64,000 nt of DNA from Planctomycetia bacterium (GTDB lineage: Bacteria; Planctomycetota; Planctomycetia; Pirellulales; PNKZ01). Positions 48,517 through 64,000 of the stretch are shown one piece after another. Each line of letters opens with the position of its first letter. The stretch's first letter is position 1. The DNA lies in the NCBI GenBank assembly GCA_021413845.1, contig JAIOPP010000075.1:62001-126000 (forward strand), written 5' to 3'. The position numbers were made by a program, and so were the translations under genes. Under the pieces are notes generated by a model. That model made no database searches, was not told where the DNA came from, and saw only the letters and a program-made list of their open reading frames with translations.

Positions 48517-49047
48517 GACCGTGGCCTCTCGGAGCTAGACAATGGGGGGTGCGATCGGCGTTGCTCGTATCTAGTTGGCTAATATCAGTTTACGTTGGTT
48601 TTTGCGAAGTGGTTCACCAACGGCGAAGCCGTATATTACTCGTCGCCGAAGCGGAGCGGCAAGCAGCCTTTTCGTGGGAGAACGGCCGCTTAAGGGCGGG
48701 TTTTGCGGCCGAACTTGCCCCGTTCGGCCAAATTCGGGGTCGCAAGGCCGTGTCGGGAACCGACTTTACGCTCCGTGCGTCCAATCCGTCGGTCGAAATC
48801 GTCGGAAGGATCAAAAACGGCGTTCCGGTTGTAATATCGAACGGTGTGGAGCGAATGTAGAAGTCGTAGGTTAATTTCAATGAGCTTTTGCCAAGTCGGC
48901 ATCGCTCAGGGTAAATTAAAGGGTTGGAATAGAGAGTCCGAGACGAGCTATCGGCAGACCGAATGCGGGGGGCGTGCGACGCCGCCTCGCTGCCGCCGAT
49001 TGGCCCCACCAGGAAAGCGCATCCCCAAGAAGGATGCGATTGCGCCC
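48517..49047. other. 530-base gap upstream of the pseudokinase gene
   Basis: No convincing gene was found between the divergent gdhA and pseudokinase genes. A 103-residue open frame at 48549-48860 has no domain or Shine-Dalgarno and looks like a shadow. Part of the region is likely to carry regulatory DNA, including the promoter candidate at 48888-48917. Confidence 0.5.
48888..48917 (+). promoter_or_regulatory. Candidate sigma-70 type promoter
   Basis: TTGCCA (48888-48893) and TAAATT (48912-48917) have an 18-base spacer and lie about 130 bases before the ATG at 49048. This is a weak match, and would give a leader of about 120 bases for the pseudokinase gene. Confidence 0.3.
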
Positions 49048-52000
49048 ATGTCGTTTCCCGTTGAATCGTTTTGGAAGTTAGTCGTCGATGCGCAACTTCT
49101 CACGTTGGAAGATTGCCATCGGCATCATGCCGGCTGGCTACAGCAAAACCCGCAAGGGGGCGACGCTCAGAGTCTCGCCGAGTTTCTCGTAGCGACGAAC
49201 GTCATCAGCCGCTACCAAGCGTCGATCTTGCTCGCGGGCCGAGCCGGGCCGTTCGTCTACGGCGACTACCGAATCTACGACCGGATCGAGTCGGGCCGAC
49301 TCTCCGGAATCTTCCGCGCCCTCCACATTCAAACGATGCATCGGGTCTGTCTGCAATTTCTCACCGCCGAACAAGCGGCATCACCCGAAGCGGTCGCGTA
49401 TCTCACGCAACGCTCTACGCTCACGTCGCAAGTCAGCGCGGGCTGCCCCAACTTGCTGCGCTGCTACCATTTGGTCGATCTCGGGCCGTTCAAGTTTTTC
49501 GTGTTGGAAGATCTGCAAGGGAAGCGTGTCGAGCGGCTGCTGCAACAGCAAGGCGCGATGAAGCCGAGCGAGGCTTGCCGTATCATCCGTCAAGCGGCGC
49601 TCGGATTGGCTCGGATGCACTCCATGCAGCAAGCGCACGGCGATGTGCGCCCGTCGAACATTTGGGTCGATGCCGCCGTCGCGGGTGCCAAAGGGACCGT
49701 GAAGATGTTGCAGTTCCCGATGGTGCGCGATCCGCTTGCGCCGCCGATCGAATGGCGTAAGCAACTCGCGCTCGGCGACGGGAAGATCCCGCCGGAAGCA
49801 GACTTCGTCGCTCCGGAGTTGATCGGCGGCGGCGTTGCCGATGCTCGGAGCGATATCTATCAGCTCGGTTGCAGCTTCTATCAGATGCTTACGAATAAAC
49901 CGCCGTTCGCCGGCGAGACGTTGCGCGCGAAGTTGGAAGGGCATCTGAAGGAACAACCGACGCCGATCCACAAGCTGAATCCGAACGTGCCGACCGATCT
50001 TTCCAAGCTCATCGGCTACATGTTGCAAAAGAAACCCGAGATGCGGTTTCAGCAGGTCTCGGTGGTCGTCGAGAAGTTGGTGCCGTTTATGTCGACGGCC
50101 GAGTCGCAAATGCAACCGCCGCCGCCGAGCCGAAATGCGACTGCCTACGACGCTTGGATTGCCGAGACGTTGAATGCCGCCGCGGCGGCCGCTGCCGCGA
50201 ACCCCGGCTACGGGCACGGCACGCAGCAAGCGCCGCAACAGCAGCAACCGATGCAACAACATCCGATGCAGCAGCCCATGCAGCAAGCTCCGATGGGAGG
50301 GCAATACGGAGCCGCGCCGAATCCTTATAATCAACAGCCCGCTCAGTTCGGCCAACAGCCCGCTCCGTATGGTCAGCAACCGGCATCGCCGTTCGGTCAG
50401 CAGCAGCCTGCCGCTTTCGGTCAACAACCGGCTCCTTTCGGACAACAGCCGGCCTCCCCGCAGCCGTTCGCCGCGCCGCAACCTTTCAGTGCGCCGCAGC
50501 CGTTTGCCCCGCCGATGGGTTCGGCACCGGCCGGACCTGCCGTCGGAACAAGCGAAACCTATCAACCGAAGAAAGGTTCATCGTTCGGATTGATCGCGAT
50601 CTTGATCGCGGTGCCGCTCCTCGGCGCGGCCGGCTACTTCGGTTGGGATCGGTTTATGAAGAAGCGCCCCGGCTTGCCGCCGGAACGCGTCGCTCTCCGA
50701 CCGAATGCCACCGGAACGGCCGTTAAGAAGCCCGTGCCTACGGGCACCGCTCCTACGCCGACGGCGACGGCCGCCGCTCCTAAGGGAGTCGCGGTTCCTA
50801 AACGAGATCTCATCGCCTCGACCGGTGCGGATCCGATGTACGACTCGCCGACCGCCGGAAAGCCGCTTAGCCTAAGCCACATGGTGCCGGGCGTGCAGAT
50901 GGTGATTGCCGTCCGTCCCGCCGAAATCGTCAAGCATGCGGAATCGGCAAACCTTCTCGACCCGAAAGTTTCCGGTTCGCTCGGGCCGTGGCTCGCAACC
51001 ACCTTACCGACGATCACCGGCGTGCCGAACGAAACGGTCGAGCAAGTCATCGTCGGCATTCTCGATGGTCCTAGCTCCGACGCGGTTCGCTATGCCTACG
51101 TGGTTCGATACAACACGGTCGTTGCCGAGGCAGACTTGCTCAAGGCCTGGGGCGGACCCACGGAAGAAATGAGCGACACGACGAAGATCTACGTCAAAGA
51201 CGGAACCGCTTATTACTTACCGACGAGCGAGCAAGGCAAGGTCGCCGTGGTCGTGCCGAAGGAAGAAATCGCCGGCGTCTTGAAATATAAAGGTTCGCCG
51301 CCGCAACTCCGTTTGGAGTTGGAATATTTGGTGCAGTCGGCGACCGATACGGATCGCCACCTCACGATGCTTTACACCCCATACTTCTTAGAGTCGGGCG
51401 GCAAGAGCTTGGTCGCCGGACCCGTGCAGACGGGCCTGCCCGCCATCAATTGGTTGCTCACCGGGGTCGGCTTGCCGCAATTGGCGTCGGCGGGCGACGG
51501 CAGCACTGCCGATGGAGGTGGCCTCGCCGACGGCGGCGCAATGTCGGGGTCGATGAATTCCGAAGATGCCTTGCCGCCCAAAGCGATTGCCTTCAGCGCC
51601 CACCTCGGCGATGCGTTTTTCTACGAGCTCCGTACCTATAACGGTGCCGCGACGGCGTTCACGGAAGCCTTGGCCGAACCGTTGTTCAATCGTGTGAAAG
51701 AAATTCCGAAGCGGGTCGAAGCCTATGTGCTGAGTTCTCGGCTATCGCCTTATAGTCGGGCCGTGTTGTTCAAATTTCCCGGCATGGTGAAGTTCGTCGA
51801 CAGCCACGTGCGCGCAGGCTGCGCCGATCGGCAGATCGTGTTGCGCGGGTACATGCCCGCCATCGCGGCACACAACATTCTCCTCGGTGCCTATCTCTGT
51901 TTGCTCGAATCCCCGAGCGCCGTCGCTGCGCCGACCGCGGTCGCAAAAGGCCCGGCGAGCCCCGCCGCCACGGCCGGGCTGACCGGCGCCCAAGCGGCGA

Positions 52001-52347
52001 TCAAGAAACCGATGTCGCTCACCTTCGACCGCAACAATCTCGAAGTGACGATGCAATTGATCGCGGAAGAAATCGGAGTGCCGATCGAAATCATCGGAAC
52101 CGATCTGCAGCTCGAAGGGATCACGAAGAATCAATCGTTCGGACTCGACGAAAAGGTTCAGCCCGCCGATCAGATCTTGCGTACGATCATGAAGAAAGCC
52201 AATCCCGACGGCAAGTTGGTGTACGTCATCAAGCCAAAGAAGCCGGGAGATCCCGACATGATCTTCATCACGACGCGCGCCGCCGTAGAGAAGCGGAAAG
52301 ACAAGCTTCCGGCCGAACTCGTCGCGGCTCCTCCTGCGAAGAAATAA
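49048..52347 (+). CDS. Membrane pseudokinase with Gln/Pro linker and C-terminal secretin-like short domain
   Basis: The 1099-residue protein has a Ser/Thr kinase fold at about 72-350. It appears inactive: the Lys of the VAIK site is absent (CLQFL in its place), the catalytic loop reads AHGDVRPSN (Asp199 kept) and no DFG is seen; the later parts (DFVAPELIGG, DARSDIYQLGCSFYQML) are conserved. A Gln/Pro/Phe repeat linker (392-490) is followed by a membrane helix (512-533), a large extracytoplasmic region, and a C-terminal STN-like domain (989-1075) resembling secretin N-terminal modules. Planctomycetes have many kinase fusions; this combination is unusual. Start ATG 49048. Next gene is 68 bases downstream. 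Confidence 0.82.
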   Translation: MSFPVESFWKLVVDAQLLTLEDCHRHHAGWLQQNPQGGDAQSLAEFLVATNVISRYQASILLAGRAGPFVYGDYRIYDRIESGRLSGIFRALHIQTMHRVCLQFLTAEQAASPEAVAYLTQRSTLTSQVSAGCPNLLRCYHLVDLGPFKFFVLEDLQGKRVERLLQQQGAMKPSEACRIIRQAALGLARMHSMQQAHGDVRPSNIWVDAAVAGAKGTVKMLQFPMVRDPLAPPIEWRKQLALGDGKIPPEADFVAPELIGGGVADARSDIYQLGCSFYQMLTNKPPFAGETLRAKLEGHLKEQPTPIHKLNPNVPTDLSKLIGYMLQKKPEMRFQQVSVVVEKLVPFMSTAESQMQPPPPSRNATAYDAWIAETLNAAAAAAAANPGYGHGTQQAPQQQQPMQQHPMQQPMQQAPMGGQYGAAPNPYNQQPAQFGQQPAPYGQQPASPFGQQQPAAFGQQPAPFGQQPASPQPFAAPQPFSAPQPFAPPMGSAPAGPAVGTSETYQPKKGSSFGLIAILIAVPLLGAAGYFGWDRFMKKRPGLPPERVALRPNATGTAVKKPVPTGTAPTPTATAAAPKGVAVPKRDLIASTGADPMYDSPTAGKPLSLSHMVPGVQMVIAVRPAEIVKHAESANLLDPKVSGSLGPWLATTLPTITGVPNETVEQVIVGILDGPSSDAVRYAYVVRYNTVVAEADLLKAWGGPTEEMSDTTKIYVKDGTAYYLPTSEQGKVAVVVPKEEIAGVLKYKGSPPQLRLELEYLVQSATDTDRHLTMLYTPYFLESGGKSLVAGPVQTGLPAINWLLTGVGLPQLASAGDGSTADGGGLADGGAMSGSMNSEDALPPKAIAFSAHLGDAFFYELRTYNGAATAFTEALAEPLFNRVKEIPKRVEAYVLSSRLSPYSRAVLFKFPGMVKFVDSHVRAGCADRQIVLRGYMPAIAAHNILLGAYLCLLESPSAVAAPTAVAKGPASPAATAGLTGAQAAIKKPMSLTFDRNNLEVTMQLIAEEIGVPIEIIGTDLQLEGITKNQSFGLDEKVQPADQILRTIMKKANPDGKLVYVIKPKKPGDPDMIFITTRAAVEKRKDKLPAELVAAPPAKK
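50221..50517 (+). repeat. Gln/Pro/Phe repeat-coding segment
   Basis: Residues 392-490 of the pseudokinase contain many copies of short units such as FGQQPA and PQPF, with variable DNA (mixed codons), so selection is at protein level. The stretch is a flexible linker between kinase fold and membrane helix. It is not a CRISPR or satellite. Confidence 0.8.
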
Positions 52348-52415
52348 GGCAAGAGTAGCAACGACGCGGAAGCTTGCGCGACCCGTTCTTTGAGTCGGAC
52401 TTCGAGGCGTGCATC

Positions 52416-54374
52416 GTGGAATTGTTTTCCGTAGCCTGCATCACGTGCCGAGCCAAGATCAAGGTTCGGAGTATGTCGGCGATCGGACAAGTGCTCGCTT
52501 GCCCGCGCTGCGGCGGTATGGTCGAGATCTCTCCGCCGATGGGTTGGAAGCCGCCGGCCGGCAAACCTGAGCCGGAAGCGAAACCCCAGGCGAGACCCAC
52601 AACGACGGATCGCCTAGAACCTCCGGTGCCTGCCGCCGCCGTGACGCCGACCGAAGGTTATGTCGGCATCGCCGAACCGGTCCTCGACGACGATCCGCTC
52701 GCCGAAGCGATGCGGCTTTCCGCCGAGCGCGAACGGTCGCAGCGCAAGTTACTGCTCGTCGGCGGAGCGTGCGCCGGAGCGGCACTCTTGGTATTAGGGC
52801 TTTGGTTCGGTTTCCGCAAGCCGACGGAGGAACCGACCGCGAGCAATACTAAGGCTCCGGAAGTCGCGCCCCCTGCGCCGTTGCCGAGTCCCACGCCGAA
52901 GGTAATTCCCACCGCAACGGCCGCGGCGATTTCGTCGCCTCCCGCGCCGGTTCCATCGGCTTCGTTGCCCGTGCCGACACCGACGTCCTCGGCACCGGTC
53001 GTTCCCGTGCCGAGCGCTACATCGCCTCCGCCTCCCGTGCCGCTCGCGACACCGACTGCGACGCCCTCTGCAACGGCCCTCGCACGTATCGATCCGCCGT
53101 CGAAGATACCGCCGCTGCCGGTCCCTAGTGCGACTCCCATTGCAAAAGGGACGAAGCCTCTCGTAGCGGTTCCCCTACCGGAAACGGAAGCTCGGTTGGC
53201 GATGAAAGCTCCCGTGATCGATCTGTCCGGAACGACACGCAAGAACGCGCTCGACGTCGTCGGCCGATTGGCCGGAGTCGGCATCCGATACGACTGGGAT
53301 ACGCTTGCTCCGGCGTCTCTCAAGCTTTCCGAGCAGGTGACGCTCAAGCTGCGTGATGTGTCGTATGCCGAAGCATTAAAGAAGATCCTCGAACCGGTCC
53401 ACGGCACATATCAAGTCGTCGGCAGCAACGTATCGGTTCGTCCTTTGTCGAACGGTGCGCGGCCGAATGACTTGCGCTATCCGCTCGGAGTTCTGACGGC
53501 CGGCGATGCGGGGCAGACGGAGAAGCTGTTGACGCTCGTTCGCGCTTTCGTCGAGCCCTCTGTCTGGGACTCGTCCGGCGGCACGGGAACGCTCAAGGTC
53601 GAGGCCGATCAACTCGTCGCAACCGGTTCGACGGATGTTCAAGCTGCGCTGATGCCCGGCGAGCTGACCTTGTTTCTCGATCGCCTCACGACGGCGTGCG
53701 GCAAGCGGCCGACCGGTTCGCCGCCGAGTTTGGAGTCGCGTGCGGCGCAAGCGAAGAAAACGCTGGATAAACTCGTGACGATGAACTTTCGGCCGGGCGT
53801 GCCGCTCGCCGGAGTGCTGGCCCATTTGGAGAAGAGTGCCGACGTGATCATCACCGTCGATTTCATAGCGCTCGCCGACCATGGTTTTCTTCCCGATGCG
53901 AAGATCGGCATCGCGGCCGATAAATATCCGCTCGCGCAAGTTTTCTCCGCGTTGTGCGAGCCGCGCGATTGGGCCTGGCGAATCATCGATGACAAGACCT
54001 TCGAGATCACGACGCGCGAATCGCTCAAACGCCGTGGCTATGTCGAGTTCCACGATCTCAAGCCTCTGACGACGGCCGGCATCGCCCCCGTCGTGTTGAT
54101 CGAACAATTGAAAACGCAATTCGCCGACGCCGGTTGGCGTGAAACCGGAGGCGAAGGAGTTCTCTACTACGACGCTCTCTCAGGCCGGCTCCTGGTTCGA
54201 CAGCACCAAGACGCCCAACTGCGAATCGAGCGATTCCTTTCGGAACTCACCGCGGCGGCGATCGGCAACGCTTCGTCCATCGGCAGCGCAGTGCCGCTCG
54301 GTAACACCGTGCCGAAGGCAACACCGACCGGCACGCCCGCCCCGAGCAACTCACCGCCGCTTTCCGCTCCTTAG
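52416..54374 (+). CDS. Zinc-ribbon membrane protein with two secretin-like short domains
   Basis: From GTG 52416 (652 residues, GAGG eight bases upstream) the protein opens with a zinc ribbon: CITC at 8-11 and CPRC at 29-32. A membrane helix follows (LLLVGGACAGAALLVLGLWFGF, about 110-132), then a Pro/Ala/Ser/Thr linker. The extracytoplasmic part has two STN-like modules (SGTTRKNALDVVGRLAGV...; RPGVPLAGVLAHLEKSA... with DWAWRIIDDKTFEI). It shares module type with the preceding pseudokinase, so the two probably work together. The zinc ribbon faces the cytoplasm. Ends four bases over the next, convergent gene. Confidence 0.78.
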   Translation: MELFSVACITCRAKIKVRSMSAIGQVLACPRCGGMVEISPPMGWKPPAGKPEPEAKPQARPTTTDRLEPPVPAAAVTPTEGYVGIAEPVLDDDPLAEAMRLSAERERSQRKLLLVGGACAGAALLVLGLWFGFRKPTEEPTASNTKAPEVAPPAPLPSPTPKVIPTATAAAISSPPAPVPSASLPVPTPTSSAPVVPVPSATSPPPPVPLATPTATPSATALARIDPPSKIPPLPVPSATPIAKGTKPLVAVPLPETEARLAMKAPVIDLSGTTRKNALDVVGRLAGVGIRYDWDTLAPASLKLSEQVTLKLRDVSYAEALKKILEPVHGTYQVVGSNVSVRPLSNGARPNDLRYPLGVLTAGDAGQTEKLLTLVRAFVEPSVWDSSGGTGTLKVEADQLVATGSTDVQAALMPGELTLFLDRLTTACGKRPTGSPPSLESRAAQAKKTLDKLVTMNFRPGVPLAGVLAHLEKSADVIITVDFIALADHGFLPDAKIGIAADKYPLAQVFSALCEPRDWAWRIIDDKTFEITTRESLKRRGYVEFHDLKPLTTAGIAPVVLIEQLKTQFADAGWRETGGEGVLYYDALSGRLLVRQHQDAQLRIERFLSELTAAAIGNASSIGSAVPLGNTVPKATPTGTPAPSNSPPLSAP

Positions 54375-56102
54375 CGCGCTCCGTCGCGCCGCAGACCGAA
54401 CGACAGAAACCGGATCCCCGTCGGTTCGTCGACGACGATCGTTCCGCCCGGAGCGAAATACTTTTGCAGCGTCTCGATCGGCGGCAAAGGGCGGTCGGCA
54501 AGTGCTTGGTTCAAATCTTTGAGTAGCGGATTCCGTTCGCCGCCGCGGGCCATCTGCTCTCGGATACGCTCGTTGAATGCGAGGCCATGCACGAACCGCA
54601 GTTCTTCGTCGGGCCGTGAAAATGCAAAGTAACCCGGCCCTTGATCGCCGGCGTAGCGCTTCGCCTTTCCTGCGATCAACTTATATTCCAAAGACGACGC
54701 CAGGCGATGCGCCTCGTCGCCGGCCGTCGCGATCGCCTTCTCTAAGACACTCGCGCGATCGGCGATCAAGAGGCAATCGCCGAGCAGACAGAACGAGGCT
54801 CGGGGGCGAAGTGCGGCATCGGCTTCCGTTTCATTGCGTCGCAAAGTCGCATCTTGGTAATACGTCGTTCCGGCGTAGCTGCGCGTCGCCAACTTGTCTT
54901 GCAGTTTCGTCGTCATCTTTTTCAATATCGGCAAGAACTTCTTACCGTCTTTCAAATGCACGCCGACGAGTTGCGCTCGGCTTTGCATGCTCACAGGCTC
55001 TTCGATCGAAAGCAGGAAGCTGATGCGACCTTCGAGTTCCGGCAGAAGTTCCGCCTCCAAGTCGATGTCGGTCTGCTTCAACAACGGATCGCGCACTCGA
55101 CCTTGAAACGTTCCCCCGCCGCTGAAGCTGTCGACGATCGTGCGCAGCTTGTGATACGTTCGGTCGACGTCCCAAGCGAACGTCGCGTAGCTCGCCACGG
55201 TGTCGCACACCCACGGCTCGGGCTCGGTCTTCGTCGGCTGCAAGGCGATGAGTTCCAAAACTCCTGAGCGCGGCACATCCAGCAGCAAGTAGCCCTGTAG
55301 GATCGTCTCGAACGCACCTCGATTAAATGTCAGGCTTCCGCCGGCAGCCGTGAGCCCATCGAGCCCGAGTGCCGGCAATAAGGTAAGGCCGACTTGCGCC
55401 GCGGTGTTGTTGCGAGTCGTAGTTTGCCGGTGTCGCACCGTTCGAGGCAGTTGTCCCGTTCCAGATCGCCACGATTCGCTTGACGACATCGAGATCGGTG
55501 CCGATCACCAACACTCCTTCGCGACGAAGATAGAGCACTCGCTGAGCGCGTCCGGCCCCGGATCGAAAAACATTCAACTTCAGATCCCCGACCGACTCCG
55601 ACTCTTCAATCCATCCGGCCGCGAGCGCCGTCGCTCGGCCGCGCTCGAGAAGCGTCGCAACGCTCCGATCTCCCTCAGGCACTTCCATAAGAAACAATAG
55701 AGCGGGGGACGCACCATCGACGCCGACGATCGCAACGCCGCATTCGCCGTGCGAGAGCCCTAGCAACTCGGCCAACGATAAGCCGAGCCGTTCCTTCACC
55801 GGCTCGAACGCCTTTTCCACCGCCGCGAACGCTTGATCCAGCAGCGGCTTGAATTGCGGGTCTTGCGCCATTCTTCCGATCGAGGTCTTCCACCACTCTT
55901 CGCGAACCAGTGAAGCGTCCGGAGCGCGAACGTAAGCGAGCGTTTCCGGCGGCAACATGCGAGCGAACTCGACCCGCTTCGTTGCCCCACGCGTTACATC
56001 CTCAGCGGCTTTCGCGCGTACAGGCTCCAGCGATACGCCGAGCATGGCGGCGACAAGGCAAAAATAGAAAGCCGAGATTCGGCGAACGACTGTCCGATAC
56101 AT
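54371..56102 (-). pseudogene. Exported or envelope protein, apparently disrupted by frameshift/deletion
   Basis: Two overlapping frames encode parts of one protein. The first (from ATG 56102) has a signal segment (RISAFYFCLVAAMLGVSL), EFARMLPPETLAYVR and GVLVIGTDLDVVKRIVAIW and then loses sense after about 55440. The second frame resumes with RNNTAAQVGLTLLPALGLDGLTAAGG near 55420 and runs on to 54371 with WDVDRTYHKL and ISFLLSIEEP. From memory, related planctomycete proteins have about 40 more residues between these points, so a deletion plus frame change, rather than a single base, is likely. Either a pseudogene or an assembly artefact. Confidence 0.65.
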
Positions 56103-56140
56103 GAGATAGGCGCTCGCATAAGTCCGAGTAAACGGCAAAC

Positions 56141-56169
56141 TTTTACGGTCGTAGCGATTGTAGTATACT
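56141..56169 (+). promoter_or_regulatory. Candidate promoter of the BON-domain gene
   Basis: TATACT (56164-56169) with TTTTAC (56141-56146) 17 bases before it, in the A/T-richest patch of this area. The start would be about 45 bases before ATG 56220. The -35 is poor. Confidence 0.4.
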
Positions 56170-56219
56170 GAAACTCAATCGAGTCACTTAGTCGCTAGAG
56201 AATGACGAAAGGCGCAGCG

Positions 56220-57044
56220 ATGAATCGATCGACGAAGCTCGTTGCGGCAGCCCTGGCCTACGTCGCGCCTCTCTGCTGCGGCTCGTTCGCCGAAGCTCAG
56301 CAGAGCGCGAGTTCGGGAAGCAGCGGCGCTTTCGGCGCGCGTTCACTTGGTTCGAGTTTCTCGCCAACCGCAAGCGGCTTCGCCCCCGGCGGCAGCAACG
56401 GGCTCGGTGCCGGCATGGGGGGCGTCGCAGGAATGACGACCCGCGGCGACAACACCGCCGGGCAAGTTTCAGGCAACGAACGCTTCGTGCGCGGCAGCCG
56501 CAGGCCGGGACAATTCGTCGGGGCAGACAATGCCGACACGTCGAACTTGATGAGCCAACTCTCTTCGATGGCTTCGCAAAACCAGCTCGGCCCGCAACGG
56601 AACAACAACGCGGCGAACCCGAACCGCACGACGGGCAACCTCGGCCTTGGTGCGCGGCGTGTCCAGCCGCGCGTGGCCGTGAGCGTCGGCTTCGATTATC
56701 GCACTGCGGGATCCGACGAAGCCGGCACCGTCTTGCAGAATCGGTTCACCAAGTCGTCGCGGCCCGGCCTACGTGGGCGCGTCATTGTGAATTTGGAAGG
56801 GACGACGGCGGTGCTTCGAGGGAATGTTGCCACGGAACACGACCGCGTTCTAGCCGAGCAAGTGGCGCTCCTAGAGGCCGGCGTCGGGTCGGTTCGAAAT
56901 GAGCTGCAGGTGATCCAGAGGGAGAACCTGCCGACGCAGCAGGCGCCGTCGATCCAGCCGCTGAGCCCGCAAAGCCCGACGATGAAGTCGGCGCCGTCGA
57001 GTACCGGCTCGAATAGCTTGCGTTTGGTGCCGCCGGCTCCGTAG
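56220..57044 (+). CDS. Exported protein with C-terminal BON domain
   Basis: The 274-residue protein has a signal peptide (KLVAAALAYVAPLCCGSFAEA), a Gly/Ser/Asn-rich linker of about 110 residues, and a C-terminal BON domain (about 180-235: GRVIVNLEGTTAVLRGNV, AEQVALLEAGVGSVRNELQV), a module that binds membranes or other envelope proteins. ATG 56220 is preferred over 56202, with AAAGG upstream. The 3' 263 bases overlap the convergent lipoprotein gene. Role unknown; the fold and position suggest an accessory for the secretin apparatus. Confidence 0.78.
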   Translation: MNRSTKLVAAALAYVAPLCCGSFAEAQQSASSGSSGAFGARSLGSSFSPTASGFAPGGSNGLGAGMGGVAGMTTRGDNTAGQVSGNERFVRGSRRPGQFVGADNADTSNLMSQLSSMASQNQLGPQRNNNAANPNRTTGNLGLGARRVQPRVAVSVGFDYRTAGSDEAGTVLQNRFTKSSRPGLRGRVIVNLEGTTAVLRGNVATEHDRVLAEQVALLEAGVGSVRNELQVIQRENLPTQQAPSIQPLSPQSPTMKSAPSSTGSNSLRLVPPAP

Positions 57045-57831
57045 TCGCTCCAAAGCCCGGTTGCGTCGGTTGTGCGAAGCCGGTCCGTCGCAGAGCGTCG
57101 GTCCCTGTGGGGAGCGAGATCGTCGTGGTGCTCATTCGTCGCGGCGGGTTGCTTGAGTTCGCCGCGGCAGTCGGATCCATCGCCGGAGCATCATAGGCGA
57201 CGAGTTGTACGCCATCGGCTGGAGCGCTCGGGAGCGGCCGTTGCGCAACCGGCGGATCGGGATACTTCGTCGGATCGCTCGTCCTTGAGCCGGGGAGATG
57301 CTGACGTGCCGCATCGCCGATTACGACCGGTCCGTTGTCCGGAGTAAAGCGGACTAGCAAGCTGATCTCTTTAAGCGGTCCACCGGCGGCATCCCACGGC
57401 AGCCACACGCTATAGGAATGCCCGAGCGACGACTTGCTGTAGTGCTTCTCGAACTGCTCGGTCGTGAAGACGAACTTCCGGTCGGGCTTCGTGTTTTCGA
57501 CGTCCCGCCCGGTCTCGTCGAAGGCGTAGACCATCAACGAGCCGCGTACTTGGATCGGCTTTCCTCCTTCGACATCGTAGAACATCAGTCGACCGCCGAA
57601 CCCGCGCGTTGCCGGCTTCATTCCTTCGGTCAGCACCGTATCGGTCCACACGGCCACGACCTTCATTGGCGCTTTGAGCTCGCCGTCACGTCCGGCACCC
57701 CAAGGAATATTCTTGCGCATGTCGAACTTGTCGAGATCGAATTTCGCGCAGCCGCCGAACGCAAGGAGCGCCGCGAGGCATGCGGCAATCGCAGTTCCGA
57801 AGACCGGCCAGTCGACATTCACGCTCTTCAA
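56782..57831 (-). CDS. Lipoprotein of the secretin operon, C-terminus overlapping the opposite gene
   Basis: The 349-residue protein has a lipobox (ALLAFGGC), a beta-type core at 40-200 (VVAVWTDTVLTEG, GRLMFYDVEGGKP, SYSVWLPWDAAGG), and a low-complexity Pro/Ser/Thr tail. It lies 12 bases after the secretin gene on the same strand and so is likely its operon partner. The tail (last 88 residues) is antisense to the end of the BON gene. A frameshift near the end, which would move the stop, is possible. A pilotin-like role is possible, but sequence does not show it. Confidence 0.75.
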   Translation of the reverse strand: MKSVNVDWPVFGTAIAACLAALLAFGGCAKFDLDKFDMRKNIPWGAGRDGELKAPMKVVAVWTDTVLTEGMKPATRGFGGRLMFYDVEGGKPIQVRGSLMVYAFDETGRDVENTKPDRKFVFTTEQFEKHYSKSSLGHSYSVWLPWDAAGGPLKEISLLVRFTPDNGPVVIGDAARQHLPGSRTSDPTKYPDPPVAQRPLPSAPADGVQLVAYDAPAMDPTAAANSSNPPRRMSTTTISLPTGTDALRRTGFAQPTQPGFGATTEPAAPNASYSSRYSTAPTSSSGFAGSAAGSTAPAASAGSPSGSPAAHFEPTRRRPLGAPLARLERGRVPWQHSLEAPPSSLPNSQ

Positions 57832-57843
57832 GTTCCGATTCCT

Positions 57844-60800
57844 TTATGGTTGCCGCGGTGGTTCGATCGGAGCGGCGTACTGAACTTGCACGACGCCGGA
57901 TTGCGAGCCCGCTTCATTCGGTGCGGCTTCGCTCGGAGGTGCGACGTTTTGCACGGGCCAGCGCGGAGCCGGTGCGAGGCTACCGTCGGTCGGCGGCGGA
58001 GTCTTCATCGGAACGACGATCGGCTTTTCATCGAGTGTCGCAGGGGGAGTCGCGCCGTTGTTGGGAGCCGGAAGTTCGACGGCAGGATGCGGAATCGGCG
58101 TGCCGTGCGGCGATTCGTCGGGATAGATCACCATCGTCTCTTCGTCGGCCCAAAGATCGTTGCGTGTTTGCAGGCCGTTGTTGCCGTAGAGTGCCTTCAC
58201 GTCTCCCAAGCACCACGACATCCGTGCCGATTCGATCTGCCGCAATCGAGCCGCATCTTGCTCGGTGCGAACGACGTGCGGCGTCATGATGATCAGAAGT
58301 TCGGTCCGTTCGCTCGTGATGTTGTCGTAACGGAATAGATTGCCGAGAATCGGAATCGACGACAACACCGGTACGCGGCGATGCACTTGCGACTTCGCCT
58401 TCGTAATCAAACCGCCGAGCACCACGGTTTGGCCGTTCATCGCGCTGACGGTCGTTTGCGCGGTCGTCGTATTGATGACCGGTTGACGCACGACTTCACC
58501 GGTCGTCGAAACGGAAATCGGTACACCTTCCGCTTCAGGCCCAAGAGCCGATTTCTCGGCGTCGATTTCCATCACCACTAAGCCATCGGGGCTGATTCTC
58601 GGCGTCACTCCGAGGATCAGCCCGACGTTCACATCGACCACGTTGTTGACTTGCCCGGTCGTGTTGATGGTCACTCCTTGCACACGCGGCACGCGCGAGC
58701 CGACTTGCACGAATGCGGCTTGGTTGTCGAGCGTCATCACTTGCGGACGACTGAGCACGTCGAGCCGACGACTTTCCTGTAGTGCGCGAATCAACACGCT
58801 CACGCTTTCGCTGCTCGCCGACAATACGAGACCGCCGAAGCCGAGATCGGCGTTCGTGCGTCCGACCGCGAAATTCGAAAGCCCTTGCGCGCCGAGTCGG
58901 CCGGAATTGGCTAGCGCCTTGTTGCTGCCGCTGTTGCCGAGTGGGGCATTATTGAATGCGTAGCCGGGATTGTTCGTCGCCGCGACGACGTTCTGATTCT
59001 GCGTCGTGATCGTACCGCCGCCGGGGACGGCTTGCTGCGTCGAGTTCGTAACGGTGACGAGATCGCCGAGCAGGCTGCGGTCGAACAAAATCGAATCTTG
59101 TAAGCCGAGCTCGATGCCGAACTCGTCGGTATTGTTGAGCGCCACTTCGGCGATGAGCACTTGAATCATCACCATCGGCGGTCGTGCGTCGATCTGCTCC
59201 ACAACCTTGCGAATCTCTTCGAAGTAGCGCGGAGTCGAACTCACGATCAGGCTGTTGCTCACCGGTTCCGGCACGACGACCACTTCGCGCTCGATCTGCT
59301 CGAAAGGGCTCAGCAAGCCCGACGATACTTGCTGCACGTCGCGCTCGCTTCGGAGAAACTGGTTGATCGCCTGAGCGACGTCCGCAGCCGGTGCGTTCTT
59401 CAAGCGGTAGACCGTGCTCTGGCGTTGACGAATGTCGCTGTCGTCGAGCCGTAGAAGAATCGCTTCGACGACGGTGAGATCGTCGGCACTGCCGGAAGCG
59501 ATGATGCTGTTGGTCCGTTGATCGACGGAGAACCGCAACCGAACGAGCAAGTTCGCCGTTCCTTGTTGCGATTGGGCTCCTTGCGCACCGAAGCCGCCGG
59601 CCGTTTGCGTTTGCAGCCCGAACAAGGCATTGAGCATTTCGACGAGCCGCGTGGCATCGCCGTTGACGATCGTAAAGACCTTGATTTGAGCCCGAGCCGC
59701 GGGCGTAGCGTCGAGCTGACGTACGAGCGCGGCGATCAAATCCATCGCTTCGGCCGGAGCGGAAACGACGAGCGAGTTGGCTCGCGCATCGGCCGTGATC
59801 CGGACTTCGGTGAGAATGCCCGAGCGATATTGCTTGTGCCCTTGCGAGTCGATAGTGCTGAACCGCAATGCGGCCGAGCGTGGTCCCGGCGCGGTCGCGG
59901 CATTCGCTCCCGGTTGTGCTCCTGCGCCGCCGAGTGCCCCGGCGATAGCTCCTGCCGGCGTGTTGCCGGTCGTGCCGAGTTGCGCGTTGACCGACTCTTG
60001 CAATACCGGCGCAAGTTCGTCGGCCAGAGCGTTGTCGAGATGAAACACACGGAGTTCGTTTTCCGCTTCGCCCGTCGTGACGTCGAGCCGCTTAATAAGC
60101 TCACCGGCTTCGATCAAATCGCGAGGGCCGCCGCGCACGATCAGGGAATTGCTCCGCACGTCGGCCGTGATCTGGATTTTCGTCGAGAGGCCCGGCCGGT
60201 CGACGAAGAAGCTTTGCAACGTCGTTTGCACGGCCGTGGCCGTGGCATGCTTCAACGGATACACGGCGAATTGCGAAGCGGGATCGACCGGTTGATCGAG
60301 CTTCTTCACAAGCTCTTGCACCGCTTGCACGCTCTCGGCGCGACCGATCAGCAACAGTGCGTTCGGCTTCACGAGCGCCGTAATGCTCACTTTCCCCTGT
60401 CGGGGCGAAAGAACGGCATCGTAGATTTGCGTCACGACGCCGGTGAGCGCTTCGCCCGAAACATGCGCGAGCGGCACGATCTCGATCGTCGGCTTCGTGT
60501 CGACGCTGAGGCGTTCGATATCTTCGATGATCTTCAAGACGCGCTCGACATCGCGATCGTTGCCGCTCACGACGAGCACGTCGAGCCCCTCGAGGAATTC
60601 GATCTGCACGGGCCCGACGAGTCCGGTGTTCGTGCCGAGCGCCGCTTGTACGTCGGCGGCGACCGTTGCTGCATTGCGATTCGGAATACCTTGATTCGGT
60701 GTGTCTTGATTCGTCGGTGGATTTACGGCCTGAGCTTGCGCCGCGGCGGCGGGAATCGGCGGCGCGACGGCACCTGCGGGCACTTGAGCGTTGTTCGCCT

Positions 60801-61914
60801 GATTGGGATTACGAGGCTGGAAAACCTGCGCCATGAGCGGCATCGTTTCCGGTAACGCTCCTCGCTCGCTCTCGCGATCGGTGTCCGGTTTCGCAGCGAT
60901 CCGGTGCGACACGGTCATCGCTTGCCGCAACGACTCTTGATCGGCAGCGCGATAGGGGACGACATGCTTAGGAGCTTCTTCGGCTTTCCGATCGAAAGCG
61001 GCGATCAGTTTCGCAGCCGCGGTCGCACGACGCTCGTCTCCGACGAACTCGATCGAGCGGCGCGCCGGATCGTAGACGATTTCCAGCGGCTCCGCCTCCT
61101 TGAGCGCCAATCGTAGGCGAACCCGTCCATCTCCTTCAGTGGTCGTGGTCGAGAGGCGCACACCGTAGAGACGCCGAATCTGAGCTTCAAGCGTCGGCCA
61201 TTCAATTGAGCGTAGCGTGACGCTTAGAGCGTTCGCCGCGGTGAGTTCGGGAACGCCCTGAGGTTGCATGGCGATCGGCGGTGTCGCCACCGGCTGCAGT
61301 TGCGCATCCACGAAGTTTGCGATCTGTTGTTGCGTTGCTTCGTCGGCAACGACGAGCACCTGGCCGGTGCGCGCATCGGCTGCGATGCGAGTCGCGCCTG
61401 CGGCATAACGGCGACGTAGCTCCTCGGCCAGCGTTTCCGGAGCGATGCCGGGCAATAAGTACGAGCGCATCGACGGGGCGACGGCCGGTGTCGAGGCGGC
61501 GGCGACTGTCGCACGGTCGAGATTAGCGACGGCTTGTGCCGCGAGGTTTTGAGTTTGCGGCGAGCCGCGGATCAGGAGACGATTCGTGTTCGCATCGACG
61601 ACGATCTCGAAACGCTCGCCGCTTCCGGAAAGAAGCGATTCGAGTTGCGCCCGTATTTCCTCGGCGCGCACGTTCCGCAACGCATAGGCTTCATACGTTC
61701 CGACGATCGCGGAAGGCGTCGACTGCGCTTGCGCCGCCGGCAGCGCGATATGCGCGAGCCACAATAGCACCGGCAACCATCGTGTGAGATGGTGCTGCGC
61801 GCTAGATCGTTGATTGGCGGTCGCGAAATTCACTTCGAGCGTCGCTGAGCGGGATTTGCCCCCCCGCCAGTTCGACTGCCGTACGCAAGTATGCCGGCGC
61901 ATACTTCGCGACAC
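57844..61914 (-). CDS. Very large secretin (GspD/PilQ family) with about nine N-terminal modules
   Basis: Secretins form outer-membrane gates of type II secretion or type IV pilus machines. This 1356-residue protein has a signal region (LPVLLWLAHIALPAAQA, 47-63), nine N1-like modules (73-134, 151-206, 228-308, 424-470, 475-540, 548-610, 620-735, 742-824, 832-909) many with a TNSLIV-like strand and ending in LD, then the secretin core (912-1215) with VPVLSSIPILGNLFR at 1181-1195. A Pro-rich tail follows. Typical GspD has three or four N-domains and 650-700 residues. The start is unclear: GTG 61914, ATG 61902 or GTG 61833. Confidence 0.92.
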   Translation of the reverse strand: MSRSMRRHTCVRQSNWRGGKSRSATLEVNFATANQRSSAQHHLTRWLPVLLWLAHIALPAAQAQSTPSAIVGTYEAYALRNVRAEEIRAQLESLLSGSGERFEIVVDANTNRLLIRGSPQTQNLAAQAVANLDRATVAAASTPAVAPSMRSYLLPGIAPETLAEELRRRYAAGATRIAADARTGQVLVVADEATQQQIANFVDAQLQPVATPPIAMQPQGVPELTAANALSVTLRSIEWPTLEAQIRRLYGVRLSTTTTEGDGRVRLRLALKEAEPLEIVYDPARRSIEFVGDERRATAAAKLIAAFDRKAEEAPKHVVPYRAADQESLRQAMTVSHRIAAKPDTDRESERGALPETMPLMAQVFQPRNPNQANNAQVPAGAVAPPIPAAAAQAQAVNPPTNQDTPNQGIPNRNAATVAADVQAALGTNTGLVGPVQIEFLEGLDVLVVSGNDRDVERVLKIIEDIERLSVDTKPTIEIVPLAHVSGEALTGVVTQIYDAVLSPRQGKVSITALVKPNALLLIGRAESVQAVQELVKKLDQPVDPASQFAVYPLKHATATAVQTTLQSFFVDRPGLSTKIQITADVRSNSLIVRGGPRDLIEAGELIKRLDVTTGEAENELRVFHLDNALADELAPVLQESVNAQLGTTGNTPAGAIAGALGGAGAQPGANAATAPGPRSAALRFSTIDSQGHKQYRSGILTEVRITADARANSLVVSAPAEAMDLIAALVRQLDATPAARAQIKVFTIVNGDATRLVEMLNALFGLQTQTAGGFGAQGAQSQQGTANLLVRLRFSVDQRTNSIIASGSADDLTVVEAILLRLDDSDIRQRQSTVYRLKNAPAADVAQAINQFLRSERDVQQVSSGLLSPFEQIEREVVVVPEPVSNSLIVSSTPRYFEEIRKVVEQIDARPPMVMIQVLIAEVALNNTDEFGIELGLQDSILFDRSLLGDLVTVTNSTQQAVPGGGTITTQNQNVVAATNNPGYAFNNAPLGNSGSNKALANSGRLGAQGLSNFAVGRTNADLGFGGLVLSASSESVSVLIRALQESRRLDVLSRPQVMTLDNQAAFVQVGSRVPRVQGVTINTTGQVNNVVDVNVGLILGVTPRISPDGLVVMEIDAEKSALGPEAEGVPISVSTTGEVVRQPVINTTTAQTTVSAMNGQTVVLGGLITKAKSQVHRRVPVLSSIPILGNLFRYDNITSERTELLIIMTPHVVRTEQDAARLRQIESARMSWCLGDVKALYGNNGLQTRNDLWADEETMVIYPDESPHGTPIPHPAVELPAPNNGATPPATLDEKPIVVPMKTPPPTDGSLAPAPRWPVQNVAPPSEAAPNEAGSQSGVVQVQYAAPIEPPRQP

Positions 61915-62025
61915 GGCTTCTATCGGCCCGGCTTGCGGGAAGCTTGAGAGATTCTCGCGACTTTGAGAATCCGCTCACCGTTGCATGCCGGCAACGCAGC
62001 GCTCGCCGGCGAATATGCGGAATTC

Positions 62026-62976
62026 TTATAACGGCGCTGCCGGCAACTCGACCGCTTGCCCGAGCGATTTTCCGAGACTGACGATGCGGCGTTTTCCGGC
62101 CGAATCGATTTCGATTTCTTGATCGCCGATGCGCACGAGCTTGCCGGAGAATTGCCCGACTTCGACCGCATCGCCGACGGAGAGCTTCAACAATTGATTC
62201 GTCGGGCGAACGTTGAGCCAAGCCTGGGGTTTGAAGTCGACGAAAATGATCGACGTCAGAAATGTGAACTTCGCCGGATCGAACGCCGGCGGGGCAGGAG
62301 GAATCGCTTCAACGGCGATCTTCGGCGGAACGGCAGGCGGTGGAGGAACATACGGCGCAAATACGTTACGCGCGACGATCGCTTGAGCGAGTTCCGTCCC
62401 GCGGGCTTCGTCGAGCTTAGAGCCTGTCGTTGTGTTCAAAGTATCGGCTCGGGTCGCGTCGTCGACGGCGAGCGCTTCGATGCCGGCCGTGAGTTGTACT
62501 CCACCGCCGTCGAGCGCAGGCTGGAGCGAGACGTCGCGCAGTTGATGCAGATGATCGGCCCGATAAAAAGTAGCGAGCCAAGCAGCTACTTGGGCGAGCG
62601 TCCCTCGGGCACGAAGCGTAAACGGCAGCTTCGTATAAATGCCGCGCAACTGCGTGCTTCGGCCGGGCTCTACGTTGACCTGCGTCAACTGCGCGCGGTC
62701 GACCGTACCGACCAGCCAGTTCTGATACAACGAACGTGCCAACTCCGCATCGCGCGGTAAAGATTTCTCTTCCCACGTGGCCAGCCGTTCGTTGTCGAGT
62801 CCGGCTCGAGCGATGAAGAGGCGCTTCTTTTGTACTTCCTTCGTGAGCGATTCGATTTGCCCGCGGCGCAACTGCATCGCCTCGTCGAACGATTGACGAC
62901 CGAGCCATGCGACGGTGACGAGCCCCAGCGCGGCGACGACCGCGGCCAGCTTTTTCTCGCGAGGTTCAAGAGCCAT
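62026..62976 (-). CDS. PilO/PilP-like component of the secretin system
   Basis: The 316-residue protein has an N-terminal membrane helix (AAVVAALGLVTVAWLG), a helical stretch, a PilO/GspM-like ferredoxin-fold section (RGIYTKLPFTLRARGTLAQVAAWLATFY), and a C-terminal beta domain similar to PilP/GspC (FLTSIIFVDFKPQAWLNVR, LKLSVGDAVEVG). Such proteins bridge the inner-membrane platform to the secretin. Its ATG overlaps the end of the upstream gene by 11 bases, so both belong to one operon. No catalytic motif exists. Confidence 0.75.
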   Translation of the reverse strand: MALEPREKKLAAVVAALGLVTVAWLGRQSFDEAMQLRRGQIESLTKEVQKKRLFIARAGLDNERLATWEEKSLPRDAELARSLYQNWLVGTVDRAQLTQVNVEPGRSTQLRGIYTKLPFTLRARGTLAQVAAWLATFYRADHLHQLRDVSLQPALDGGGVQLTAGIEALAVDDATRADTLNTTTGSKLDEARGTELAQAIVARNVFAPYVPPPPAVPPKIAVEAIPPAPPAFDPAKFTFLTSIIFVDFKPQAWLNVRPTNQLLKLSVGDAVEVGQFSGKLVRIGDQEIEIDSAGKRRIVSLGKSLGQAVELPAAPL

Positions 62977-64000
62977 TAGCTCCCCCTTTCACGATGGGAG
63001 GAGCATTCGCCTGCACCGGCTTCGCTGCCTGTGCATCGGTCTTTACCGTCAGGTTCGACTTAAATCGCCAAGGGTAGCGGCTTGTTTGCGGATCGTGCTG
63101 CCGTCCTTTGCCTTCGATCGAATGCTGTGCATCGCGCAAGCGCCGTTCGAGCTCATCCACGACGTCGGCATCGCTCACCAGCCCGGACATTTGCAACTCG
63201 CCTCCTTGCGGATGCGCGGTGAAGCGAAGTTGCGTGAGTTGTAGTTGCTCGGCCGAGGGCGCGAGCCGCGAAAGCCGTTCAAGCTCGGCAAGCCACACGA
63301 CGTCAGACTTCAACCAGCGCTCGATCTCGGTCGCTTTCCGTTCGATCTCGGCTGCGGTTTTCACCGGTGCTTCGAGCGCGCTCGAAGTTCGCTTCAAGGC
63401 GACGATTTCTTCGTCGAGCCCGTTTAAGCGGCTCTTGGCGAAGAGCCAAATCCCGGCGAAGAGCAATGTCGCACAGAACGCGCCGATCAGAACTTGCTTG
63501 CGACGATTCGGAGGTGGAGCGGCCCGGCGCGGGTTCACGAAGTCGAACCGTGGACGAACTCCCTCCGCTTCATCGGCCGCCATGCCGAGCACTGCGGCGA
63601 AGCGACCATGCGCGGCCTCGTCGGTCGCCGCGTATTCGAGCGGCTCCGGCAGCGGTTTCCAGGGATCGACTAAATCGACCGCCACGACCAACTCGCTCGC
63701 AAGTTTCGTTGCCGTCGCGGCCCAATCGTCGGCCGCGCCGCAAAGCTCGATCCTTTCCACGCGCCGTTCCGGCCACTGATGATGCACGGCCGCGAGCGTG
63801 CGGCGAAGCTCGCTCGACAATGCACGGGCATATTCCGGCGCTGCCGTATCGCCCGGCATGCGTGCGCTTCGCAGCAGCACGATGTTCGGTCCGACGAGCG
63901 CCGTGACCTCGGCCTCGTCCGCCGCCGGCTCGACCAATAGTCGCGCTACGTCGTCGTGCGGCAATCGCCGCAAAGCCAACGACGCCGTTGCCGCCGGGCG
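62966..64000 (-). CDS. PilM/PilN (GspL)-like assembly protein, N-terminus cut by window edge
   Basis: The frame is open to the window end (344 residues present), so the start is missing. The first half is a cytosolic, actin-like part of PilM/GspL type (ALVGPNIVLLRSARMPGD, VERIELCGAADDW), then a membrane helix (VLIGAFCATLLFAGIWLFA, about 170), and a PilN-like periplasmic half with coiled coil (AEIERKATEIERWLK) and the ferredoxin-like TQLRFTAHPQGGELQMSG. It is the first gene seen of the secretin operon and overlaps its next gene by 11 bases. Confidence 0.75.
   Translation of the reverse strand, partial: RPAATASLALRRLPHDDVARLLVEPAADEAEVTALVGPNIVLLRSARMPGDTAAPEYARALSSELRRTLAAVHHQWPERRVERIELCGAADDWAATATKLASELVVAVDLVDPWKPLPEPLEYAATDEAAHGRFAAVLGMAADEAEGVRPRFDFVNPRRAAPPPNRRKQVLIGAFCATLLFAGIWLFAKSRLNGLDEEIVALKRTSSALEAPVKTAAEIERKATEIERWLKSDVVWLAELERLSRLAPSAEQLQLTQLRFTAHPQGGELQMSGLVSDADVVDELERRLRDAQHSIEGKGRQHDPQTSRYPWRFKSNLTVKTDAQAAKPVQANAPPIVKGGANGS

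What the first reader, a model, noticed from the sequence alone, without database searches (positions are those of the whole stretch)
48844..64000. Candidate undescribed envelope system: secretin operon plus opposing accessory genes
A secretin operon (PilM/N-like, PilO/P-like, giant secretin, lipoprotein) faces a run of plus-strand genes with secretin-type modules and a BON protein. The domain overlap and closeness suggest one system that is not a standard type II or type IV set.
Basis: inference. Interest (0 to 1): 0.65.

Follow-up and report, generated by a model that had tools for sequence, protein, structure and literature searches.

The report
Secretion operon with overlapping antisense genes
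This is an ordinary kind of protein-export machine in a planctomycete bacterium, but its last gene and a neighbouring gene on the opposite strand share about 260 letters of DNA that code for parts of two different proteins at once, an arrangement kept across a whole order of bacteria.

Summary
The minus-strand genes at 57844-64000 are the far end of a type II secretion (T2SS) operon. Beyond the window edge it continues with GspE, F, G, H, I, J, K and L, so it is not an unknown envelope system. The first two plus-strand genes (a pseudokinase protein and a zinc-ribbon protein) are a separate cassette: in 117 related genomes they sit near the secretin gene in only 3 of 26 and 3 of 27 genomes that have both, and often occur without it. 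The BON gene, the lipoprotein gene (LIP) and a DUF3352 gene do track the T2SS.

The surprise is the LIP-BON junction. The two genes converge and overlap by 263 nt here. Among 95 distinct loci the overlap is 100 nt or more in 89, and all 91 overlapping loci share one reading-frame phase. Both frames are constrained: silent-site divergence in BON falls from 0.50 to 0.19 inside the overlap (16 of 16 independent pairs), with a step at LIP's stop codon. In a sister family without overlap the drop is absent (0.51 against 0.49). How LIP and BON serve the secretin is inferred, not shown.

The parts
56782..57044 (.). 263-nt tail-to-tail overlap of LIP (minus) and BON (plus); LIP codon positions 1,2,3 face BON positions 1,3,2; codes for the LIP proline-rich tail on one strand and BON residues 194-280 on the other
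   Evidence: first stop codons of both frames; same phase in all 91 overlapping distinct loci of 95; step in wobble divergence at both borders
56782..57831 (-). LIP: predicted lipoprotein, last gene of the T2SS operon; FN3/Ig-like beta-sandwich core (residues 53-182), disordered Pro/Ala/Ser/Thr-rich tail
   Evidence: adjacent to GspD in 69 of 69 genomes with both; structure pLDDT about 97 in the core; no Pfam family
56202..57044 (+). BON: predicted exported protein, disordered N-terminal half and a C-terminal BON domain
   Evidence: Pfam BON in 18 of 18 homologs; helix-strand-strand-helix-strand, pLDDT about 90 at residues 171-237; linked to GspD in 45 of 49 genomes
57844..61914 (-). GspD, giant secretin (1356 aa, 8 Secretin_N stretches)
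   Evidence: Pfam; NCBIfam type_II_gspD above its cut-off
62026..62976 (-). GspM/PilO-like protein with a C-terminal GspC-HR/PilP-like segment
   Evidence: among 12 homologs T2SSM matches in 4 (best 0.00098) and PilO in 3; conserved RNxF motif followed by a conserved segment; the HR/PilP likeness is recalled, no model matched
62966..64000 (-). GspL/PilM-PilN-like protein, cut by the window edge (501 aa in L008:2967-4472)
   Evidence: weak NCBIfam Amuc_1101 PilM-like match 2.2e-5; position in the operon
54371..56138 (-). DUF3352-family exported protein, split into two frames by a frameshift in this assembly
   Evidence: Pfam DUF3352 1.7e-7, 10 of 11 homologs; 50 of 51 genomes with it also have GspD
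52374..54374 (+). zinc-ribbon, membrane, STN-like protein; NOT part of the T2SS module
   Evidence: linked to the kinase gene in 33 of 35 genomes but to GspD in 3 of 27
48844..52347 (+). membrane pseudokinase with conserved C-terminal domain; NOT part of the T2SS module
   Evidence: Pkinase 7.4e-24 but no VAIK lysine or DFG motif; linked to GspD in 3 of 26 genomes

Best explanation
The locus is a planctomycete type II secretion operon (gspE-F-G-H-I-J-K-L-M/C-D-LIP) whose last gene, LIP, converges with and overlaps a BON-domain gene. Shown by sequence comparison: LIP and BON are inherited with the secretin; in a sister family BON is simply the next gene of the same operon; in the window's order BON is inverted, and 107-398 nt at the 3' ends code for both proteins and are under purifying selection in both frames. 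Inferred: an inversion joined the two genes tail to tail, LIP's reading frame came to end inside BON, and the new tail became useful, so the overlap can no longer be undone. Inferred, less surely (about one in three): LIP (anchored by its lipid) and BON are exported accessory proteins that help seat or brace the very long secretin between the membranes, standing in for the pilotin/scaffold pair (GspS, GspB) of proteobacterial systems. Any antisense pairing of the two mRNAs is a possible further effect. The confidence given is for the shown part.
For: T2SS: GspD and GspG exceed their NCBIfam cut-offs; GspE, F and K are best matched by T2SS models, somewhat below the cut-offs; H, I, J weak but in order; same order in relatives; prepilin peptidase family present in the genome. 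Module: GspD-LIP 69/69 linked, GspD-BON 45/49; GspD upstream of LIP in 71 of 78 testable named loci and BON in 65 of 73. Dual coding: overlap of 100 nt or more in 67 of 70 named loci and 89 of 95 distinct loci; all 91 overlapping loci in one phase; antisense run open for 228 nt on average against 109 nt in synonymous shuffles of BON; BON four-fold wobble divergence 97/501 inside against 609/1220 outside, LIP 47/500 against 851/1772, 16 of 16 independent pairs for each, with a step at both stop codons; BON wobble G/(G+C) 0.69 inside against 0.47 outside, higher inside in 84 of 89 loci. Control without overlap: 54/107 against 187/379, and G/(G+C) 0.46 against 0.45. Operonic BON: same strand as LIP in 13 of 16 loci of family f21.
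Against: No expression, ribosome-profiling or protein data. The 95 loci share ancestry, so counts are not independent; the 16 pairs share no locus, but some come from one genus. The control has only 5 pairs (not independent) and 107 sites, and in 4 of those 5 pairs the homologous region was somewhat lower than the rest. The secretin-bracing role has no direct test: LIP's fold is a generic beta-sandwich (best Z 8.6, no Foldseek E below 0.001), and a few LIP homologs lack the lipid-anchor cysteine. Of the 72 genomes with GspD, 22 have no strong DUF3352 match and 23 have no BON match at the threshold used.
Confidence: 0.82

Rival explanations
1. The overlap is real DNA but only BON is selected; LIP's tail is an unselected run-on and the silent-site constraint comes from an RNA element such as a two-way terminator or antisense duplex.
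For: Convergent genes need terminators; literature notes terminators inside coding sequence of convergent overlaps (PMC2174442, passages).
Against: The constraint covers the whole overlap and stops at LIP's stop codon, the phase never varies in 91 overlapping loci, stops are avoided in that phase, and BON wobble bases shift towards G, which gives Pro/Ala/Ser/Thr in LIP. I did not test for RNA structure or terminators here.
Confidence: 0.08
2. One reading: secretin operon plus all plus-strand genes form one undescribed envelope system.
For: Adjacency in the window and in two congeners, G002 and G003.
Against: Kinase and zinc-ribbon genes are linked to each other in 33 of 35 genomes but to GspD in only 3 of 26 and 3 of 27; 23 of 49 and 12 of 39 genomes with them lack GspD.
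Confidence: 0.04
3. The machine is a type IVa pilus or a transformation pilus rather than a secretion system.
For: PilM/PilN/PilO/PilP-like proteins; GspE also matches PilB (575.8 bits).
Against: Best matches are the T2SS models: GspD over PilQ (367.9 against 205.1), GspE over PilB (618.4 against 575.8), GspF over PilC (342.2 against 263.3); GspG and GspK match T2SS pseudopilin models. No PilT gene was seen in the operon; I did not search the genome for PilT.
Confidence: 0.08

Closest known systems
Type II secretion system (Gsp)
   Same: E-F-G-H-I-J-K-L-M/C-D gene set and order; GspD and GspG pass curated cut-offs
   Different: GspM and GspC-like parts in one protein; secretin about twice the usual size with 8 Secretin_N stretches ('usual' is recalled); planctomycete-specific LIP and BON at the end
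Pilotins (GspS/PulS, AspS) and scaffold GspB of proteobacterial T2SS (PMC9239104, abstract and passages)
   Same: lipoprotein encoded with the secretin; partner exported protein encoded beside it
   Different: LIP has an FN3/Ig-like beta-sandwich and a long disordered tail; no relation shown; binding to GspD untested
Convergent (tail-to-tail) overlapping genes of prokaryotes (PMC2174442, part 1 of section 11 and passages)
   Same: opposite strands, 3' ends overlapping, phase 123:132, which that paper finds in 49% of convergent overlaps of 5 nt or more
   Different: much longer than the modal 4 nt, conserved across an order, with constraint on both frames and a natural non-overlapping control
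Long antisense overlapping genes in E. coli O157:H7 (PMC9927249, start of abstract in search listing)
   Same: two proteins read from opposite strands of one stretch
   Different: those were found by expression data; here the evidence is evolutionary, and both genes have a conserved part outside or inside the overlap with known relatives
Amuc_1098-1101 pilus/secretin cluster of Akkermansia (NCBIfam names; the organism is recalled)
   Same: weak PilM-like match (2.2e-5) and secretin match
   Different: far below the cut-offs of those models

Membership tests
Type II secretion system | GspD-type secretin | tested here: met
   TIGR02517 367.9 bits, cut-off 351.35
Type II secretion system | GspE ATPase and GspF platform protein in the same operon | tested here: met
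   best model type_II_gspE 618.4 bits (cut-off 630.25) and GspF 342.2 (cut-off 424): under the NCBIfam cut-offs but best of all models; Pfam T2SSF 2e-59, over its cut-off
Type II secretion system | major pseudopilin GspG and minor pseudopilins H-K | tested here: met
   GspG 94.4 bits, over cut-off 88.85; GspK T2SSK_1st 6.1e-20; J T2SSJ 28.1 bits, cut-off 28; H and I weak
Type II secretion system | assembly proteins GspL, GspM, GspC | tested here: inconclusive
   one PilM/N-like and one PilO/GspM plus HR-like protein; best T2SSM E 0.00098 in 4 of 12 homologs, no T2SSC match
Type II secretion system | prepilin peptidase in the genome | tested here: met
   5 Peptidase_A24 matches in 4 genes of G000
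Type II secretion system | secretes proteins to the outside | not testable with these tools
   needs mutants and secretome
Dual-coding overlapping gene pair | both frames open in opposite directions over more than 100 nt in orthologs | tested here: met
   89 of 95 distinct loci
Dual-coding overlapping gene pair | purifying selection on both frames | tested here: met
   wobble divergence steps at both borders, lower inside in 16 of 16 pairs; absent in non-overlapping control
Dual-coding overlapping gene pair | both products are translated | not testable with these tools
   no ribosome profiling or proteomics held
Pilotin | lipoprotein signal with lipid-anchor cysteine | tested here: met
   Cys28 in at least 90% of 69 homologs; some lack it
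Pilotin | known pilotin fold | tested here: inconclusive
   FN3/Ig-like rows, best Z 8.6, rmsd 3.1, 99 aligned; a family not listed is not excluded
Pilotin | binds the C-terminal S domain of the secretin | not testable with these tools
   no complex prediction or binding assay available

The most novel reading that the evidence does not exclude
LIP, BON and DUF3352 form a planctomycete-specific outer-membrane assembly and bracing complex for a giant secretin, and the dual-coding overlap is not just a frozen accident but couples the two genes: the shared 3' ends make complementary mRNA tails, so that LIP and BON levels are balanced against each other.
Probability: 0.2. Interest if true: 0.8.

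Novelty: new variant of a known kind. Interest (0 to 1): 0.6.

Why it matters
Long antisense overlaps in bacteria are often doubted as annotation errors. Here both genes are conserved, the silent-site constraint switches on and off at the two stop codons, and a sister family without the overlap serves as a built-in control. That makes it an unusually clean test case for how two proteins evolve on one stretch of DNA, and for how an overlap arises by inversion. It also names two candidate accessory proteins for the little-studied secretion machine of planctomycetes.

Tried and rejected
One-system reading of all genes: rejected by linkage and co-occurrence. Active kinase: rejected for the window gene and its aligned homologs, which have no lysine where the VAIK lysine should be and no DFG motif (21 sequences aligned, four of them without a kinase domain). 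LIP as a member of a known fold family: only generic beta-sandwich rows; no pilotin appeared among the rows shown, which excludes nothing. LIP in Pfam: no sensible match in 20 homologs. Literature: no paper on a planctomycete T2SS accessory pair or on this overlap among the listings; subscription journals are mostly missing, so this is not proof of absence.

Limits of the counts. The listings were truncated, so kinase and zinc-ribbon places are those listed; I kept kinase rows judged to be the same gene (mostly rows covering the C-terminal domain) and left out others, which are mostly other kinases. As a result some genomes with a real copy, such as G011 and G077, are missing from the kinase list (in both the copy is far from GspD). 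For the zinc-ribbon gene I likewise kept only part of the listed rows (39 genomes of the 93 with any match). For DUF3352 I kept rows at E 2.6e-17 or better and dropped the weaker rows (mostly paralogs), a threshold set after seeing the list. Pieces of one gene were merged or one piece kept. Fisher tests ignore ancestry. In one search, 121 loci were scanned, 108 held both genes, 95 were distinct; pairs were limited to BON identity 0.55-0.985 with both overlaps of 100 nt or more. In one search, BON was found in 70 of 80 loci. RNA structure in the overlap was not tested.
Full report
What the finding is. The window lies at 62001-126000 of a 138,018-base contig. The 'secretin operon' at 57844-64000 is the distal part of a longer minus-strand operon. 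The next 12 kb of the contig carry, on the same strand, GspE (569 aa), GspF, GspG, GspH, GspI, GspJ, GspK and the rest of the PilM/N-like GspL. GspD and GspG exceed their NCBIfam cut-offs, and GspE, GspF and GspK are best matched by the T2SS models though under the cut-offs; H, I and J are weak. The order E-F-G-H-I-J-K-L-M/C-D recurs in related genomes as far as their contigs and the fetched stretches reach and in a second family of the class; in 9 of the 20 loci no operon gene other than GspD was detected upstream, partly because contigs end there, partly for reasons not followed up. So the core is a T2SS, not an unknown system.

Which neighbours belong. I searched the same 117 related genomes with six window proteins and compared places. 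GspD is in 72 of 117. LIP (56782-57831) is in 70; in all 69 genomes with both it lies near GspD. BON is in 50; in 45 of the 49 with GspD it lies within 15 kb, always on the opposite strand; the fiftieth, G067, has LIP beside BON. A strong DUF3352 match is in 51, of which 50 have GspD; it is linked in 28 and elsewhere in 22, so co-occurrence holds even without linkage. The kinase and zinc-ribbon genes behave differently: they are linked to each other in 33 of 35 genomes, to GspD in only 3 of 26 and 3 of 27, and often occur without it. They are a separate cassette that happens to sit here in one genus.

A second sample. A scan of named species genomes with the LIP alignment gave 191 relatives, of which the best 80 were kept; their titles are planctomycete or name planctomycete genera. 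GspD lies upstream of LIP in 71 of 78 testable loci and BON downstream, convergent, in 65 of 73; DUF3352 follows in 13 of 58.

The overlap. In the window the stop codon of LIP lies inside BON and the stop codon of BON inside LIP: 263 nt are shared. In 67 of 70 named loci with BON the overlap is 100 nt or more. In the pooled set of 95 distinct loci it is 100 nt or more in 89 (107-398 nt, median 221); the exceptions are L031, L032, L033, L080, L101 and L138, and all 91 loci that overlap do so in the same phase. That phase, 123:132, is the commonest for convergent overlaps of 5 nt or more in a survey of 58 genomes (49%, PMC2174442), so the phase itself is not odd; its constancy is.

Are both frames selected? 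(1) In synonymous shuffles of BON the antisense frame stays open for 109 nt on average; the real genes give 228 nt (69 loci). (2) In this phase BON's third codon base is LIP's second. At four-fold sites with unchanged BON amino acid, wobble divergence is 305/1267 inside against 1579/2889 outside the overlap, lower inside in 44 of 44 pairs. With 16 pairs that share no locus it is 97/501 against 609/1220, 16 of 16 lower inside. The change is a step: 0.50 in the last 60 nt before LIP's stop codon and 0.15 in the first 60 nt inside. LIP shows the mirror image at BON's stop codon (851/1772 outside, 47/500 inside). (3) BON's four-fold wobble bases shift towards G inside (G/(G+C) 0.69 against 0.47, 84 of 89 loci), which puts C in LIP's second position and gives Pro, Ala, Ser and Thr, like the rest of LIP's tail. 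(4) Control: a phylum-wide search found LIP in 21 of 294 genomes, 16 of them in one other family of the class (f21). There BON follows LIP on the same strand in 13 of 16 loci, is not found nearby in 2, and has the inverted overlapping form in 1 (L157) (in L163 the two same-strand frames overlap slightly as called from the first start codon); 7 of 8 larger stretches confirm the GspD-LIP-BON order. In those 13 loci the homologous part of BON shows no constraint: 54/107 against 187/379 in 5 pairs, and no G shift (0.46 against 0.45). The control is small, but it points the same way as the step.

What the proteins look like. LIP's core (residues 53-182) is predicted with pLDDT about 97 as an FN3/Ig-like beta-sandwich after a lipoprotein signal; its tail is proline-rich. 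BON is predicted with a disordered N-terminal half and an alpha-beta-beta-alpha-beta domain at 171-237, pLDDT about 90 in its best part. The overlap therefore codes for most of a folded domain on one strand and a disordered tail on the other.

Mechanism. Shown: gene content, linkage, conserved overlap, constraint on both frames, same-strand arrangement in f21. Inferred: an inversion of BON in the ancestor of the window's order (the direction is not proven), extension of LIP into BON, and retention because both products are needed. Inferred with less confidence (about one in three): LIP and BON help place and brace the giant secretin, the job that pilotins and GspB do in Dickeya (PMC9239104, abstract and passages). 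Antisense coupling of the two mRNAs is possible and untested.

The cassette that does not belong. The 48844-52347 protein is a membrane-anchored pseudokinase: aligned homologs lack the VAIK lysine and the DFG motif. Its C-terminal domain is its best conserved part and, in several genomes, occurs in shorter proteins without the kinase part. With the zinc-ribbon/STN-like protein it forms a conserved pair of its own.

Verdict. Observation partly confirmed; interpretation partly supported; the core machine is a known kind; the LIP-BON dual-coding overlap is the new part.

Noticed in passing
window 54371-56138 (-): The DUF3352 gene is split into two overlapping frames here (372 and 271 aa); relatives have one frame of about 600-660 aa, so this is a frameshift, either real or an assembly error.
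   Followed up: partly
window 48844-54374 (+): Pseudokinase plus zinc-ribbon/STN-like gene pair, conserved as a pair in 33 of 35 genomes with both and independent of the T2SS; function unknown.
   Followed up: partly
G000:C152:23469-23879 (in L052): A fragment 62% identical to residues 1023-1159 of the pseudokinase protein, encoded in a short frame: a partial paralog.
   Followed up: no
L008:14124-16019: A second long protein with secretin-N-like repeats and no secretin barrel seen, cut by the contig end, about 2.4 kb beyond gspE.
   Followed up: no
L025:905-8515 and L021:236-4072: Additional giant secretin-like genes (22-27% identical to GspD) beside the T2SS secretin in two other genomes.
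   Followed up: no
L027, L028, L029, L030 (GspM/C gene): The GspM/C protein carries an inserted Ig-like (He_PIG) domain between its PilO-like and HR-like parts in some genomes (4 of 12 scanned); in family f21 it is 573-638 aa.
   Followed up: no
L058, L060, L061, L064: Some LIP homologs have a signal peptide but no cysteine at the lipid-anchor position.
   Followed up: no
L157 / L181 (G267): One genome of family f21 has the inverted, overlapping LIP-BON form, unlike the rest of its family; gene transfer or a label problem.
   Followed up: no
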